Assembly: GCA_002731275.1 (NCBI GenBank)
Contig: PCBK01000094.1
Coordinates: 1-64,000, forward strand
DNA: 64,000 nt
DNA from: Deltaproteobacteria bacterium
GTDB lineage: Bacteria; Myxococcota_C; UBA6777
Direction of reading: 5' to 3'
Below the pieces are notes generated by a model. The model was not told the DNA's origin. It saw only the letters and a list, made by a program, of their open reading frames with translations, and did not search any database. The translations under genes were made by a program, and so were the position numbers. Shown here piece after piece: positions 285 to 18,059 of this stretch. The first letter of the stretch is position 1; the number at the start of each line of letters is the position of its first letter.

Positions 285-800
285 CAAGTGGCAACTTGCC
301 CGACAAAACGGCAGTCAGTAAGTGGCAACTTGCCCGACAAAACGCCAGTCAGTAAGTGGCAACTTGCCCGACAAAACGCCAGTCAGTAAAGTGGCAACTT
401 GCCCGACAAAACGCCAGTCAGTAAAGTGGCAACTTGCCCGACAAAACGTCAGTCAGCAAGTGGAAACTTGCCCGACAAAACGCCAGTCAGTAAGTGGCAA
501 CTTGCCCGACAAAACGCCAGTCAGTAAGTGGCAACTTGCCCGACAAAACGCCAGTCAGTAAGGGCAAGTGGAAACTTGCCCGACAAAGCGGCAGTCAGTA
601 AGTGGCAACTTGCCCGACAAAACGCCAGTCAGTAAGGGCAAGTGGCAACTTGCCCGACAAAACGGCAGTCAGTAAGGGTAAGTGGCAACTTGCCCGACAA
701 AACGGCAGTCAGTAAGGGTAAGTGGCAACTTGCCCGACAAAACGTCAGTCAGTAAGGGCAAGTGGCAACTTGCCTGACAAAGCGTCAGTCAGGGGCAAGA
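285..800 (+). repeat. Tandem array of 14 hairpin repeats (element A)
   Basis: Fourteen consecutive units of about 33-40 bp, each containing a core like AAGTGGCAACTTGCCCGACAA followed by ACGCCAGTCAGT. Full units contain GGGCAAGTGGCAACTTGCCC, a perfect 8-bp stem with a GGCA loop; shorter units have lost the 5' GGGC of the stem. There are no unique spacers, so it is not a CRISPR array. It lies directly downstream of the lipoprotein gene that ends at 813. Two further copies are at 14191-14237 and an isolated inverted copy is at 58018-58037. Confidence 0.9.
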
Positions 801-9408: not shown

Positions 9409-10053
9409 ATGGCGTACACAGTCAAAGAGCTCTTTTACACACTCCAGGGAGAAGGCGCACAAGCAGGCAGAGCCGCAGTCTTTTGTCGGTTCGCAGGTTG
9501 TAATCTCTGGACAGGTCGCGAAGAAGACAGACACAAGGCAGTCTGTACATTTTGTGATACGGACTTTATTGGGACAGATGGACCGGGAGGTGGCAAATTT
9601 AAGGACGCAGCTGCGCTGGCAGATGCGATCGCCGCGTGCTGGCCTGGACCTCGCGAAGGACTCCCACTCGCTCCCTATGTCGTCTGTACAGGCGGTGAAC
9701 CACTGCTTCAGGTGGATGAAGCGTTGATCGACGCTCTTCATGCACGTCACTTCGAGATCGCCGTTGAGACCAACGGTACACAACAAGCCCCTTCGGGACT
9801 CGATTGGATCTGTGTCAGCCCCAAATCCAACGCTGAGGTCATCCTCACAACAGGCCATGAGCTGAAACTCGTCTACCCTCAAACAGATGCTCCCCCCGAA
9901 CAATTCGTGGACATGGACTTCCAACACTTCTTCATACAGCCCATGGATGGTCCCCACGTCAACGAATACACACAACAAGCCATTCAATACTGTATGGCCC
10001 ACCCCCAATGGCGTCTCAGCCTCCAAACACACAAAATCACTGGTATCCCATAA
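9409..10053 (+). CDS. queE: 7-carboxy-7-deazaguanine synthase QueE
   Basis: Radical SAM enzyme that turns 6-carboxy-tetrahydropterin into 7-carboxy-7-deazaguanine, the substrate for QueC. The protein is 214 aa. The iron-sulfur motif is the CX14CX2C form (Cys31, Cys46, Cys49) found in a subset of QueE proteins, not the classical CX3CX2C. Other hallmarks are YTLQGEGAQAG at the N terminus, the SAM-binding CTGGEPLLQ, and AVETNGT. The ATG lies 8 bp after the queC stop. The protein ends just before a repeat-filled intergenic region. Confidence 0.93.
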   Translation: MAYTVKELFYTLQGEGAQAGRAAVFCRFAGCNLWTGREEDRHKAVCTFCDTDFIGTDGPGGGKFKDAAALADAIAACWPGPREGLPLAPYVVCTGGEPLLQVDEALIDALHARHFEIAVETNGTQQAPSGLDWICVSPKSNAEVILTTGHELKLVYPQTDAPPEQFVDMDFQHFFIQPMDGPHVNEYTQQAIQYCMAHPQWRLSLQTHKITGIP

Positions 10054-10076
10054 CAGACTTACGGTTGGGCAAGCTG

Positions 10077-10187
10077 CGACCGCCCTTACTGCCGCGCTTC
10101 GCTTGCCCTTGCTGCCGCGCTTCGCTTGCCCTTGCGACTGCCGCGCTTCGCTTGCCCTTGCGACTGCCGCGCTTCGCTTGCCCTTGG
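10077..10187 (-). repeat. 26-bp tandem repeat array, about four units
   Basis: On the plus strand the unit is CTGCCGCGCTTCGCTTGCCC followed by TTGCGA, repeated about four times with small deletions. Read on the minus strand it directly follows the GATAG end of the inverted B element. It resembles the short link between element B and element A at 252-290, so it is probably a differently expanded form of the same module. Confidence 0.75.
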
Positions 10188-10265
10188 CTATCGGGGACCG
10201 GAGGCGGTCCCCAAGCGCGGCTTATCAGCCTTGCTTTCCCCTCCCGTTGACACCTTCGGCGTGGC
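10188..10265 (-). repeat. Palindromic element B, copy 2 (inverted)
   Basis: Minus-strand copy of element B. Its hairpin, GGGGACCG...CGGTCCCC, has an 8-bp stem and differs from copy 1 while remaining fully paired. The flanks (GCGCTT side and GATAG side, plus GGGGAAAGCAAG) match the other copies. It shares about 28 identical bases (AAGCAAGGCTGATAAGCCGC and onward) with copy 3 in the opposite orientation. Confidence 0.75.
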
Positions 10266-10580
10266 TGCCACGCTTTGCTTGCCGGGCTGCAATGCGTCAG
10301 CTCTCGCTTGCGCGAGTGCTGCGCGTTTTGTGCTTGACCGTCGCAAGGCGACGCTCTCGCGGTGCGCCTCGTGATGTCCATCACGAAGGAGGCGTTAGAG
10401 GGAAATGATTGGGATGTGAACACACTCGCACAAAGTGCGAGCTATACCTTTGGTTTTACGGAAAGGACAGGTTACACAGTTATCCTCGGCTATCGCCTCG
10501 GGCTTGAAGAAGCAATACCGACCACTGCGTGTAAAGAAGAATTTGGAGTGTCCCTGAAGCACTAGAAACAGGAGCGAAGC

Positions 10581-10646
10581 GACTCAACAGAGGGGGAAAG
10601 CAAGGCTGATAAGCCGCGCTTGGGGGGCATTCATGTCCCCCGATAG
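10581..10646 (+). repeat. Palindromic element B, copy 3
   Basis: Plus-strand copy with the hairpin GGGGGGCAT-TC-ATGTCCCCC, nine base pairs including one G-T pair. The conserved GGGGAAAGCAAG and GATAG flanks are present. Together with copy 2 it forms a 460-bp inverted pair. Confidence 0.75.
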
Positions 10647-10728
10647 CAAAAGTCTGCCTCTACTCATCCTCCTCTCCGAAAAACACACCTCATCGTACAT
10701 AGATGCAAACCATCAGACCATAAAAGAC

Positions 10729-11976
10729 TTATGGTTGAGGTTTGTGAAGCTGTCCCATAAACAAGATCGTATTTGAACGGACGTGGCGAATCATCAACAA
10801 GAAGGGTCGATTAAATGTCACGACAGTCGGGAGACTGGCAGCTGACTTTGTCATCACGACTGCGGTTGCGGCGGCTGCTTCGCTTCCCTCTTCGTTGACT
10901 TCGAGGAATGCCTTGTGAACGACAGCGGAGATATAAAGCTGTTTGGCGTCCTTTTTGTTGATCCCACCAAAGTCTGCCTGCCCCGCCTTGAAGGCAATGG
11001 ACATTCCCATATCGGACAACACTTTCCCCATCGAAAATGCCGACGTCATCTTGAAGCGTGGCAACGAGAGCTGCACTTTGGTCTTGTACATCTTTTGTTC
11101 CCATGCGGCGAGCTGTTTAGCGTGTAGGAGCTTGCTCGCGTCCGCCAACTTCACACCTTTTTTGGGCAAAAACAAGAGCATATCGAAGGCTTTCCCCTTG
11201 TAAGGCAAAGACACCAATCGATGACCATCAATATCGGCGGTGCGGAACTTACGATTCGCAAACATCATGGGAACATTTTGCTTCTCGCCATTCTCCATCG
11301 TAAAGGGTTTGGTCGACGTATTGCTCTTGTCGAACTTATTCTCCCAATTCCCTTTGAAGTAGATAGCGTTGGTCAGCACGAGCTTGGTCGCATTTTGGAG
11401 GACGTTGGGTTTCAACAACTCTTTGATCTTGTTTTGTGTTTGTGATTCGACCCAGGCATTGATGGTATGTCGCGCGGATTCAGCTTGTTTGGCAAAGTCG
11501 AGGAGCCGCAGAGGTGCGTTGTAAAACTTGGTCATCTTGCTCTGGAAAGATGTTTCGATAGTGTACCCCTTTTGGGCCCAAAGTCGGTTGGCGACATCCA
11601 AACGGATAGCGCTGCCTTTGTTATGTCGAAGATATTCTCTCATCGAATGAATCGATGCGTTGTAATCTTTATCTTTTGCCACCTGTCGGAGCACTTTCTT
11701 CATGGCCTCCGCAGTCTCTCCTCGTGCACCAGCGGCCGTCATACTCAACGCAACGGACAAACTGTATGGAGAAAAAAAGACATTCTTTGGCGCGTTGTTG
11801 AGCTGCTGAAAGAGCGCGAGACCAAACTCATTGTTGCTATCAGAGGCGGGTTTGACGGGATATTTCGGCACAAACGGAGCATTCTTGACACATCCGACGA
11901 GCGCAAAACTCATACACCCAATCAAAAACAGACAAAACGCGAAGGACTTGGTAAACGAACGAACACTTGGTTCCAT
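10729..11976 (-). CDS. Lipoprotein serpin (serine protease inhibitor)
   Basis: A 415-aa serpin with a lipoprotein signal (lipobox LVGC, about Cys29), so it is probably anchored in the envelope. The serpin fold is clear: SPYSLSVALSMTAAGARGET near residue 70, VLTNAIYFKGNWENKF near 200, and FNRPFLLMIRH with GQLHKP at the end. The reactive-loop hinge, EEGSEAAAATAVV, has the small residues typical of inhibitory serpins, so it should trap a protease. Counting from the hinge, P1 falls near Ser-Ala in MTKSAAS, with Lys and Met close by, so target specificity is uncertain. GGAG lies upstream of the ATG at 11976. The likely role is protection against exogenous or own extracellular proteases. Confidence 0.93.
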   Translation of the reverse strand: MEPSVRSFTKSFAFCLFLIGCMSFALVGCVKNAPFVPKYPVKPASDSNNEFGLALFQQLNNAPKNVFFSPYSLSVALSMTAAGARGETAEAMKKVLRQVAKDKDYNASIHSMREYLRHNKGSAIRLDVANRLWAQKGYTIETSFQSKMTKFYNAPLRLLDFAKQAESARHTINAWVESQTQNKIKELLKPNVLQNATKLVLTNAIYFKGNWENKFDKSNTSTKPFTMENGEKQNVPMMFANRKFRTADIDGHRLVSLPYKGKAFDMLLFLPKKGVKLADASKLLHAKQLAAWEQKMYKTKVQLSLPRFKMTSAFSMGKVLSDMGMSIAFKAGQADFGGINKKDAKQLYISAVVHKAFLEVNEEGSEAAAATAVVMTKSAASLPTVVTFNRPFLLMIRHVRSNTILFMGQLHKPQP

Positions 11977-12205: not shown

Positions 12206-14133
12206 ATCGGGATAGGAGGGGGCTTCACAGCCCCGCCCCTCCCACACCACCGTACATACGGGGCCGTATACGGCGGTTCAACAGGATTGAGTATTTCTTT
12301 TGTATAACCTGAACAGACCGGCCTTATCGAAGTAAGCGTTTCGAATTGCGGGCGAGATCACAAGACTCATTCTCCAAGCACCTTTCCCCGAGTAAGACAA
12401 TCTTTTGGCTTTTCCATGCGAAAATCCTCCTTTTCGCAGTCCTCGGTATCTTGCGCTTTGGGTTTTCCATTGTGTCCACATCACACTTCTTATTCTCCTC
12501 CGTATCCACGAGTCCACCATCGGAAGCATGTTATTCACTTCTGTGAATCCGAAGTATCCGAACCATCCTCTCAAGTACGTTGATAACTCGCTGATGAGTT
12601 CTTCGATCCTGATACTCCGGTTCTTCCGGGTTATCTGGCGAACTTTATCCTTGAGGCGGGAGATGGATTCTTCTGAGATGATTCGTTTTATCAGGGGGTT
12701 ACCCCTTTTTTTTTTTGATAAAAGAGAATCCCAGGAGACTTCGTTCGGTTGCTTTGGCCACCGCACTTTTATCCTGATTTATCCGGAGTTTGAGCTTGCG
12801 TTGAAGGAATTGCTCGATACTTCGCATCACCCTGTGTCCAGCACGAGGGCTCCTGACAAAAATCATGAAGTCGTCTGCATATCGACAAAATCGGAGCTTC
12901 CTCTGTTCCAACTCTTTATCCAACTCATCAAGGATAATGTTCGAGAGTAACGGCGATAGAGGCCCGCCTTGTGGCATTCCCTCTTGTCTCGTTTTCCCTT
13001 GTTCTCCTTTGGCGGCCCCGGAGTTTAGGAGCTGCCGGATGATTCTAAGGACTCGTTTATCTCGAACTCTCTTTGCGATTCTTCCCATGAGAATGTCATG
13101 GTTTACTTTGTCGAAGAACTTCTCCAGGTCGATGTCGACGATGATATCGTATCCCTCTTCGATGTTCTTCTGAGCTGACTCTACGGCCTGGTGGGCCGAA
13201 CGTCCGGGACGAAAACCGTAGCTATTCTCTGAAAAGGTTGGATCCCATTTGTTTTGGAGCACTTGCAAGATCGCCTGTTGTATCACCCGGTCTTTTACCG
13301 TTGGGATGCCCAATTGTCGCACCCCACCTTTCGGTTTTGGGATTGTGACCCGGCGTACTGGAGAGAACTTGTATTGTCCGGTCAACATTTGGTCTCGTAT
13401 TTCAGGCCAGTGCTCTTGAAAGAATCCCTCCAGTTCGTCAGTTTTCACACCGTCGATTCCAGGTTTTCCTTTGTTTTGCACAACCTTTTTCAATGCTTCT
13501 TTGATATTGTCGTTGTGGCAGATCTCCTCCATGGTATGTTCGTGAAATACCAGGTTTTCGGTACTTTGCTTCGTCATGTCAGTGATGATCCCATTCTGGC
13601 GACCTTGGTCTTCAGTGGTAGAACTCGGGTGACCCGCGTTTTGTTTTCGATCACGTTTATCCATGAGAATTCAACTCCTATTCACCTTTCCTATTGTTCG
13701 GGCCTTCGGTCTGGTGAGTCCTCCGGCTTTTTTTTTTTTTCACCGGCTCATTTCCAAGACCTACTATGCCTTCTGCTGACTTCTACGCTGCGTTCGAGCG
13801 ACCTCTCGGTAACTCCAGTCCTTGGGCTGCTTCATTTAGCGACTGTCCCGGACAACAGGGCAGATCTCCCAGAGTAAGCATGTTTACTTTCACCGCATCC
13901 CCGCCGGATGTACCGACGAAATCTAGATGGATAGAGGACTTCGTGGTTACGCGCACACTCGTCCCATTTCGCCGGCCTCAAATCCGATTTCTGTACGTCG
14001 GGTCGCGGTTTTGCTAGTGGCTTCCTTCAGACGCCGCCTCGCGGTGGCCGCCCTTGCCGTTCGCTAGTACTTCACCTCCATCTGGTTGTACAGAGGACTT
14101 TCACCTCCGAGTAAACATGCGTGTCTGGCACAC
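12206..14133 (-). mobile_element. Group IIC intron
   Basis: A complete intron of 1928 bp on the minus strand. The 5' end reads GTGTGCCAGACACGC, then GGAGGTGAAAGTCC, typical of group IIC domain I. It encodes a reverse transcriptase/maturase. The 3' part has a domain V hairpin (GAACCGCCGTATACGG, then GTATGTACGGTGG, about 12242-12278, with a CGC triad) and a domain VI hairpin ending in CTCCTATCCCGAT at 12206. The upstream exon ends in the 8-bp hairpin GGGGATGTGGGGACATCCCC plus AGGCGC. Insertion just after a stem-loop is the known preference of IIC introns. Here the stem-loop belongs to repeat element B. Confidence 0.9.
12278..13664 (-). pseudogene. ltrA: Group II intron reverse transcriptase/maturase, frameshifted at A11
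   Basis: Intron-encoded protein that would reverse-transcribe and help splice the host intron. The first frame (12699-13664) carries RT domains 0-7, including YGFRPGRSAHQA, GMPQGGPLSPLLSN and the catalytic CRYADD. The second frame (12278-12766) carries the maturase/thumb region, with YLRGWFGYFGF and IRRRIRSVMWTQWK. The break is in a run of 11 A residues (T at 12706-12716): LLGFSFIKKKK continues in the other frame as KKKRGNP. Joined, it is about 450 aa, normal for IIC proteins, which lack an HNH endonuclease domain. AGGAG lies before the ATG at 13664. It could be a real inactivating shift, a homopolymer sequencing error, or slippage-dependent expression. Confidence 0.88.
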
Positions 14134-17220: not shown

Positions 17221-17344
17221 GGGTATGGCGCTCCAGGAAAAAGCTCAAGAGAGTGTGGGAATGTTTGGACGTGATAGGGGCAGGATGTGTTGGCTAGGTA
17301 GAAAGGAGAGTTGGGGAGCGCTTCGTGTTTGGGGGTGGTGATGT

Positions 17345-17559
17345 GATTTCCTGACATCTCTTGGGACATGGAAGGCTCACAGGTTTGCGCCACCGGTAGT
17401 GCTTCAGGCCGGACAGCAAACCAGGCTATCCTGGTTGCGCCAGCTGCTGTCCGGCCTGAAGCACTACCGGTGGCTGGCAAACCCAGAATAGCTTTCCTTG
17501 TGAACCTTTGTTGGCTTAGATTACCCGAACGACGCTGCATCGTTCAAAAGTCGAAATCT
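17345..17559. repeat. 215-bp structured element, copy 1 (covarying long hairpin)
   Basis: A 28-bp perfect stem is formed by 17390-17417 (starting CCACCGGTAGTGCTTC) and 17446-17473. It encloses a loop containing a smaller hairpin, AACCAGG-CTAT-CCTGGTT. Below it, GGTTTGC (17382-17388) pairs with GCAAACC (17477-17483), and GGAAGGC pairs with GCTTTCC. A third hairpin, GAACGA/TCGTTC, lies near 17527-17545. The element has the same length as the copy at 17646-17860 and near-identical flanks, while the main stem sequence differs. The strand of action is unknown, and it could work as DNA or RNA. Confidence 0.85.
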
Positions 17560-17645
17560 CGATCAATCACCAGACCAAAAAGGTGTACCGTGCAAACACG
17601 AAGTCGCACTCTCCAAAGAAACAAGCATTTGTGTGAGATGGAGTG

Positions 17646-17860
17646 GATTTCCTGACATCTCTTGGGACATGGAAGGCTCACAGGTTTGCGCCTCCAGGTA
17701 GGTCCCGTCAAGGACTGCAAACCGGGCTATCCTGGTTGCGCCAGCTGCAGTCCTTGACGGGACCTACCTGGAGGCTGGCAAACCCAGAATAGCTTTCCTT
17801 GTGAACCATTGTTGGCTTAGTCTACCCGAGCGACGCAACATCGCTCAAAAGTCGAAATCT
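17646..17860. repeat. 215-bp structured element, copy 2 (covarying long hairpin)
   Basis: Same layout as copy 1. The 28-bp perfect stem is 17691-17718 (starting CCTCCAGGTAGGTCCC) with 17747-17774. In an ungapped alignment, 15 of the 28 stem positions differ from copy 1, yet every base pairs. The first 46 bases are identical to copy 1. The small 3' hairpin changes from GAACGA/TCGTTC to GAGCGA/TCGCTC, another compensated change, and the loop hairpin changes one A-T pair to G-T. The start-to-start spacing of the copies is 301 bp. Confidence 0.85.
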
Positions 17861-18059
17861 GACCAACTCTATCTCTTGATGTTCTTTCGGCACGTTCGCC
17901 CAAAAAACGATCTCACAAACACAAGATGAAGGGAATGTAACAGAGCACAGACCATAGATCAAGTATAATCTGACACTGAACAAAAAAAACCCCAAATCTC
18001 CTTACAACCACCTCACACATACTGAACAAAAAATCGCCATTCAGCGCTCCATACACAAC

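What the first reader, a model, noticed from the sequence alone, without database searches (positions are those of the whole stretch)
17345..17860. Twin 215-bp elements with a 28-bp stem that differs in sequence but is perfectly paired in both
Two elements of equal length (17345-17559, 17646-17860) share a 46-base identical start and a nearly identical 86-base end. Their central stems differ at 15 of 28 positions in an ungapped alignment, yet all 28 pairs form in each copy. A second small hairpin also changes by compensated substitution (GAACGA/TCGTTC to GAGCGA/TCGCTC). This is stronger evidence for selected or template-copied structure than a plain repeat. Possibilities include a new structured RNA, a single-stranded DNA transposition or replication site, or a hairpin whose arms are rewritten by template switching. 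No associated enzyme gene is identified.
Basis: seen in the sequence. Interest (0 to 1): 0.85.

Follow-up and report, generated by a model that had tools for sequence, protein, structure and literature searches.

The report
Stray retron RNA genes, variable hairpin
The twin elements are stand-alone copies of the RNA template of a known type of bacterial reverse-transcriptase system (a type XIII retron), whose long hairpin keeps its length and near-perfect pairing while its sequence is replaced between copies, even between near-identical duplicates.

Summary
The two 215-nt elements, four more copies in the same genome and one in a relative are homologous to the msr-msd RNA of type XIII retrons. 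In 51 of 56 copies examined from other genomes the element lies just upstream of an RT_XIII gene on the same strand, usually right behind SWIM_XIII. The sense strand is the minus strand of the window.

In the window's genome the msr-msd copies are orphans: six dispersed copies without a retron RT beside them. The two type XIII operons elsewhere in the genome have no room for an msr-msd between SWIM and RT.

The msd stem stays at about 35 bp and almost perfectly paired in 63 copies (50 distinct stems). Duplicates with nearly identical flanks carry largely unrelated stems. The few interior mismatches are nearly all A-C in RNA, that is G.T in the DNA product, which suggests selection on the msDNA.

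In one relative, 36-nt pieces of the element sit between ~36-bp direct duplications, the size of that genome's CRISPR repeats and spacers.

RT-less msr-msd repeats are known (Nannocystis Nex1), so this is a new variant of a known kind. Transcription, msDNA production and the cause of stem turnover are inferred.

The parts
17345..17559 (-). orphan msr-msd copy C83a (core, sense strand minus)
   Evidence: R3 covariance model 242.9 bits (the copy is in the model); homologues lie between SWIM_XIII and RT_XIII
17646..17860 (-). orphan msr-msd copy C83b (core, sense strand minus)
   Evidence: R3 242.6 bits (the copy is in the model)
17499..17559 (-). C83a msr part (boundary inferred from the Mx162 lengths in PMC6868368), with small hairpin GAACGA..TCGTTC
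   Evidence: structure; lengths from passages; inference
17345..17506 (-). C83a msd part, template of a putative 162-nt msDNA (boundary inferred)
   Evidence: inference
17384..17418 (.). C83a msd stem, one 35-nt arm (30 nt perfect arm plus foot)
17445..17481 (.). C83a msd stem, other arm (2-nt bulge at 17475-17476)
17685..17719 (.). C83b msd stem, one arm
17746..17782 (.). C83b msd stem, other arm
17318..17331 (-). C83a outer inverted repeat, 3' arm in sense (a2-like)
   Evidence: pairs with 17593-17607 in fold
17593..17607 (-). C83a outer inverted repeat, 5' arm in sense (a1-like), contains TTCGTG
17634..17644 (-). C83b outer inverted repeat, 3' arm in sense
   Evidence: pairs with 17864-17875 in fold
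17864..17875 (-). C83b outer inverted repeat, 5' arm in sense
17934..17962 (-). promoter-like TTGATC-17-TACATT upstream of C83b in sense
   Evidence: weak on its own (p 0.31 free scan, 0.06 at fixed spacing)

Best explanation
The twin elements are orphan msr-msd genes of a type XIII (Mx162-like) retron, read from the minus strand. The inferred mechanism is as follows. The transcript folds into an a1/a2-type outer helix, a small msr hairpin and a long msd hairpin. A type XIII RT encoded elsewhere in the genome copies the msd in trans into an msDNA with a ~35-bp, nearly perfect duplex. Duplex length and perfection are under selection; sequence is free or favoured to change, so after each duplication the stem is replaced while the flanks, presumably bound by the RT, stay the same. 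Shown: homology to the msr-msd of type XIII retrons, their synteny with SWIM_XIII and RT_XIII in other genomes, orphan status here, RT_XIII operons in the same genome, and the stem pattern. Inferred: transcription, use by the RT in trans, msDNA production, and the cause of the stem turnover.
For: A covariance model built from the seven copies known then (R2) hit a genome of another phylum, the only one with a hit among the 381 searched outside the window's family. There the element lies between SWIM_XIII and RT_XIII in a HEAT-SWIM-RT operon. A sense-strand model (R3) then hit 69 of 384 genomes, G032 among them. Of 56 copies examined outside G000/G001, 51 have RT_XIII starting within 600 nt downstream on the same strand and 49 have SWIM_XIII within 600 nt upstream. 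CAGC, the priming motif quoted for Mx162 and Sa163, lies within 16 nt upstream of the core in 53 of 56. The length fits Mx162: 71-nt msr plus 162-nt msd with 8 overlapping makes 225 nt, against a 215-nt core plus about 10 nt. The genome has two type XIII operons whose SWIM-RT gaps of 10 and 35 bp cannot hold an msr-msd. The relative with one copy, G001, has an RT fragment at a contig end that by eye resembles G003's type XIII-like RT. The stem is about 35 bp in 63 copies.
Against: No retron RT lies next to any copy in this genome: none was found on C135, C142, C4 or C100, and the only RT on C83 is a group II intron RT. The CAGC motif is missing at the expected place in all six copies of the window's genome. 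A candidate G in AGA at the core start is conserved, and CAGA occurs in C83b, C4 and C100, but this is a guess. G003 has a SWIM-RT pair like that of type XIII but no detectable msr-msd at E up to 10; its assembly is 86% complete. Promoter-like sites are weak one by one. No expression data exist, so dead copies are possible.
Confidence: 0.82

Rival explanations
1. The copies are dead or dying retro-copies: msr-msd sequence was reverse transcribed and inserted at new places, as proposed for Nannocystis Nex1, and has no present function.
For: Dispersed without RT; priming motif not conserved; precedent quoted in PMC6868368; fragments of the same sequence are inserted at other sites in G001.
Against: All six copies keep every conserved block, the small hairpin covaries, the outer helix has a different sequence in each copy but still pairs, and promoter-like sites lie at a fixed distance from the outer helix (post hoc). 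Dead copies should accumulate stem mismatches; there are none in 144 cells.
Confidence: 0.15
2. The same orphan retron templates, but the stem changes are written by copying: reverse transcription with snap-back, template switching or hairpin repair makes one arm the copy of the other, so pairing is perfect without selection on it.
For: Perfect pairing with no G-U or mismatch intermediates in the six copies; duplicates with as little as 1 difference in 114-134 flank positions but 15-18 of 24-29 in the arm; arm relationships do not follow flank relationships (C83b and C135 arms differ at 3 of 24, flanks at 6 of 134; C83a and C135 at 15 of 24 and 1 of 134).
Against: Interior exceptions are nearly all of one kind, A-C in RNA = G.T in msDNA: 14 of 16, none G-U. 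That points to selection on the DNA product; a pure copying process gives no such strand bias. The 14 are not independent: some are shared by related stems.
Confidence: 0.35
3. A non-autonomous palindromic DNA transposon (MITE or REP-like), unrelated to retrons.
For: Dispersed intergenic copies in no fixed orientation to genes; inverted repeats at the ends.
Against: Conserved position between SWIM_XIII and RT_XIII in genomes outside the phylum; no direct target duplication around the full G001 copy in the scan; no phage or plasmid hit.
Confidence: 0.03

Closest known systems
Type XIII retrons (PADLOC RT_XIII, SWIM_XIII, HEAT-ARM_XIII/WGR_XIII), probably the Mx162/Sa163 group of myxobacterial retrons
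   Same: msr-msd homologous over the whole length, same small hairpin and long msd hairpin, same total length; RT_XIII operons are in the same genome
   Different: In the window's genome the msr-msd is not in the RT operon but in six separate copies; CAGC is not conserved. Identity of this group with Mx162 itself rests on lengths, motif and recall, not on a sequence comparison.
Retron-Nex1 (Ne160) of Nannocystis exedens, repeated msr-msd without RT (Lampson and Rice 1997, as quoted in PMC6868368; original not seen)
   Same: Several msr-msd repeats without an RT nearby
   Different: The passage seen reports only duplicated repeats without a nearby RT. Here complete copies with different, perfectly paired stems are shown, together with RT operons of the same genome that lack theirs. 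Nex1 sequences were not compared.
Non-canonical spacer integration by Cas1-Cas2 (recalled: Nivala et al. 2018; not read)
   Same: The G001 pieces show a 36-bp insert flanked by a 36-bp direct duplication
   Different: Here the inserted piece is always the same part of the retron element; that Cas1-Cas2 did it is only inferred from lengths

Membership tests
type XIII retron msr-msd RNA | sequence and structure homology over the whole msr-msd | tested here: met
   R2, built without G032, hit the G032 operon copy at E 1.4e-25; R3, which includes G032, links all 63 copies
type XIII retron msr-msd RNA | msr 5' of msd, 1-3 small hairpins in msr, one long msd hairpin of 10-50 bp | tested here: met
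   sense-strand consensus fold, 46 of 80 pairs with two-sided change; definition from passages of PMC6868368
type XIII retron msr-msd RNA | complementary a1/a2 ends of 8-30 nt | tested here: met
   outer helix predicted in all seven copies, different sequences (single folds, no covariation test)
type XIII retron msr-msd RNA | priming G in TAGC/CAGC/CAGA/GAGC/ACGC at the inner end of a1 | tested here: inconclusive
   CAGC in 53 of 56 copies outside G000/G001, none at that place in the six window-genome copies; AGA at core start conserved, CAGA in 3 of 6 (reading of the listing)
complete retron cassette | RT gene in the same cassette | tested here: not met
   no retron RT near any of the six copies or the G001 copy: these are stand-alone msr-msd copies, not complete retrons
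type XIII retron | RT_XIII with SWIM_XIII and HEAT/WGR_XIII partner | tested here: met
   met for the genome (C95: WGR_XIII-SWIM-RT; C154: SWIM-RT, third gene not scanned), not for the locus
type XIII retron | production of msDNA with 2',5'-branched RNA | not testable with these tools
   needs extraction of nucleic acid

The most novel reading that the evidence does not exclude
Some type XIII retrons have become a trans-encoded repertoire. One or two RTs serve several dispersed single-RNA genes. Each new copy has its msDNA stem rewritten quickly under a rule of fixed length and DNA-level pairing, as a diversified set of double-stranded DNA baits. The DNA products are common enough that CRISPR adaptation enzymes capture 36-nt pieces and insert them at non-CRISPR sites.
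Probability: 0.22. Interest if true: 0.88.

Novelty: new variant of a known kind. Interest (0 to 1): 0.62.

Why it matters
Which features of a retron's DNA hairpin matter is, to my knowledge, still largely open. Natural duplicates with near-identical flanks and unrelated stems, plus mismatches that are nearly all of the kind tolerated in the DNA strand, suggest that the stem is read as a duplex of fixed length without regard to sequence, while something drives the sequence to change. That can be tested directly. Separation of msr-msd from RT in nature also suggests that retron templates can work in trans and be multiplied. The 36/36 insertions, if confirmed, would be a genomic record of retron sequence being captured.

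Tried and rejected
Rfam at gathering level found only the group II intron of the window. With a permissive threshold the hits were mostly microRNA hairpins far below their cut-offs, that is, any long hairpin. Phage and plasmid collections gave no match. Two viral-contig scans gave none. The arms of the twins had no phage match better than chance: best E 0.2 and 0.6. The group II intron RT at 12.7-13.3 kb as partner was rejected: its own intron RNA domains surround it and it is only 26-27% identical to type XIII RT. The plus strand as sense strand, my first assumption, was dropped. An element-like hairpin or model match near the RT genes was searched and not found. Promoters: a free scan was not significant (p 0.08-0.99). 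A scan at fixed distance from TTYGTG had a combined shuffle p below 5e-5, but the motif was chosen after looking. A first idea that the G001 pieces are in-frame coding repeats was dropped after reading the frames.

Rows dropped: of 92 matches, 63 sense-strand ones were kept; 28 were antisense echoes of the palindrome; one, L132 5645-5772, was a sense copy cut by a contig end. Of the 76 matches listed, those in the 30 returned loci and in the 20 stretches fetched were examined; the rest were not.

Full report
1. Each folds into a nearly rod-like structure of -117 to -119 kcal/mol, z about -11. A search of the whole genome (10.75 Mb, 200 contigs) found six copies: the twins on C83 and one each on C135, C142, C4 and C100. 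Across the six, the first 47 bases are identical. The 24-nt variable arms differ in every pair of copies, by 3 to 21 of 24 positions, while 134 flank positions differ by 1 to 11. All 24 variable pairs are Watson-Crick in all six copies (144 of 144 cells, no G-U), and 28 pairs have two-sided changes against 13.5 in shuffles. Arms and flanks tell different histories. C83a and C135 differ at 1 of 134 flank positions but 15 of 24 arm positions. C83b and C135 differ at 6 of 134 and 3 of 24. The sequence outside the 215 nt also pairs, with a different sequence in each copy and a shared TTYGTG-like motif.

2. What it is. Phage and plasmid collections, two viral scans and Rfam gave nothing on the element at their thresholds. 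In the whole held phylum (5 genomes), only the window's genome and G001 have full copies. G001 is GenBank JALTMC01, labelled Myxococcales MAG; the five contigs shown have coverage 1.2-1.9 in their names. A covariance model from the seven copies, run on 386 genomes, hit one genome outside the family, G032 (9.0 Mb, 112 bits); the locus is 72% G+C. There the element lies on the sense strand between a SWIM_XIII gene and an RT_XIII gene, with a HEAT-ARM_XIII gene upstream: a canonical type XIII retron. A sense-strand model from eight copies, run on G032 and its relatives (384 genomes), hit 69 genomes. I examined 56 copies from these. RT_XIII starts within 600 nt downstream on the same strand in 51 of 56. 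SWIM_XIII ends within 600 nt upstream in 49 of 56. The exceptions are contig ends (L103, L132, L133, L142), larger gaps (L139, L140), two extra copies behind the RT in G573 (L131), and one orphan in G560 (L134). CAGC lies within 16 nt before the core in 53 of 56; a retron review names CAGC as the priming motif of Mx162 and Sa163 (PMC6868368, passages seen). The review's lengths for Mx162 (71-nt msr, 162-nt msd, 8 overlapping) give 225 nt, which fits the 215-nt core plus about 10. I therefore file the elements as msr-msd copies of the type XIII retron family. That this family is the Mx162/Sa163 group is likely but was not tested by sequence; that the relatives are myxobacteria is inferred from size and G+C.

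3. What is unusual in the window's genome. No retron RT lies near any of the six copies. The genome does have two type XIII operons, on C95 (WGR_XIII, SWIM_XIII, RT_XIII) and C154 (SWIM_XIII, RT_XIII; third gene not scanned). In them SWIM and RT are 10 and 35 bp apart, so the msr-msd is not in its usual place, and the model finds none nearby. G001 has one full copy and an RT fragment at a contig end that by eye resembles G003's RT. In G002 and G004 no element was found; their RT matches were located but not typed with PADLOC. G003 has a SWIM gene and an RT 42 bp apart and no detectable element, which my model does not explain unless the 86% complete assembly misses it. The most economical reading is that the template left the operon and multiplied in trans. 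Promoter-like sites sit 7-9 nt before the outer-helix motif in C83b, C135, C142, C100 and G001. One by one they are weak; together they are unlikely by shuffling, but the anchor motif was chosen afterwards.

4. The stem rule is general. Over 63 sense-strand copies the msd stem is about 35 bp (34 to 38 by fold). There are 50 distinct stems. Of 1755 pair cells in these, 14 are A-C and 2 are other mismatches (T-T, T-C) in the interior. Nine T-G and nine C-C cells, which I read as alignment effects at the stem foot, occur in nine related stems. No interior G-U was found. A-C in the RNA is G.T in the complementary DNA, so what is tolerated is what pairs in the msDNA. The 14 are not independent, being shared among related stems. 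Tandem duplicates in five other genomes show the same as the twins: flank differences of 1-4 in about 112-115 positions, arm differences of 8-19 in 29 (G437, G450, G446, G439, G573). So template duplication followed by extensive stem replacement has probably happened several times. Selection for different but paired stems, or a rewriting by copying, could both do it. The A-C bias favours a part for selection on the DNA; the absence of intermediates in the six copies favours copying.

5. Pieces of the element elsewhere. In G001 a 23-nt pattern search found nine places, one of them the full copy. At three of the other eight, a 36-nt piece is flanked by a 36-bp direct duplication of local sequence (35 of 36, 36 of 36 and 29 of 36 matching). 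One has insert 39 and duplication 34, one 32 and 33. The fixed-offset scan found none at C223, C666 and C621; by eye C223 reads S-R-S-R-S and C666 has a broken version. This genome is rich in tandem repeats, and random positions scored as high in 5 and 6 of 300 trials for two of the five sites (C356, C409). The type I-G-like CRISPR array of G001 (type by reading the genes) has 36-bp repeats and 36-40-bp spacers, and G001 has two cas1 genes while the window's genome has only a remnant. Capture by Cas1-Cas2 is my inference from lengths.

6. Literature. In the library searched (listings; PMC6868368, PMC8867640 and PMC12548924: passages only, the last with no occurrence of the terms) I found no description of this stem turnover or of trans-encoded type XIII templates. 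The nearest is the review's sentence on Nex1. Most subscription papers are not in that library, and I did not see the original Mx162 and Nex1 papers.

Noticed in passing
G000:C35:137349-139022 (L050, L082); G001:C709 (L051); G002:C85; G003:C7; G004:C386: A ~720-aa protein with two RT domains is present in all five held genomes of the phylum; in G000 and G001 it reads YLDD and YADD and the G000 one is retron-like by PADLOC. Function unknown; no hairpin RNA found next to it.
   Followed up: partly
L015:9406, L014:12324, L068:1755, L069:245, L070 (G001:C223:19459), L071:4863: 36-nt pieces of the retron element at non-CRISPR sites with ~36-bp flanking direct duplications, the same size as the genome's CRISPR repeat and spacer.
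   Followed up: partly
window 12206-14048 minus: Group II intron with an RT ORF, next to but unrelated to the elements.
   Followed up: partly
G573 L131:5560-8026: One msr-msd between SWIM and RT plus two more copies behind the RT gene, three different stems.
   Followed up: partly
G560 L134:5350-5557: A second case of an orphan copy outside the phylum, with TAGC 6 nt upstream, no SWIM or RT within the 11 kb held.
   Followed up: partly
L014:9352-9480: A 39-bp tandem repeat in G001 that resembles the 36-nt piece on the other strand; may be a decayed array of it or chance.
   Followed up: no
L088 (G000:C79) about 9800-11300: CRISPR array of at least 20 repeats next to a cas1 remnant with an in-frame stop.
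   Followed up: no
window 285-400: Short tandem repeats with units of about 34-40 bp (AAGTGGCAACTTGCCCGACAAAACG...).
   Followed up: no
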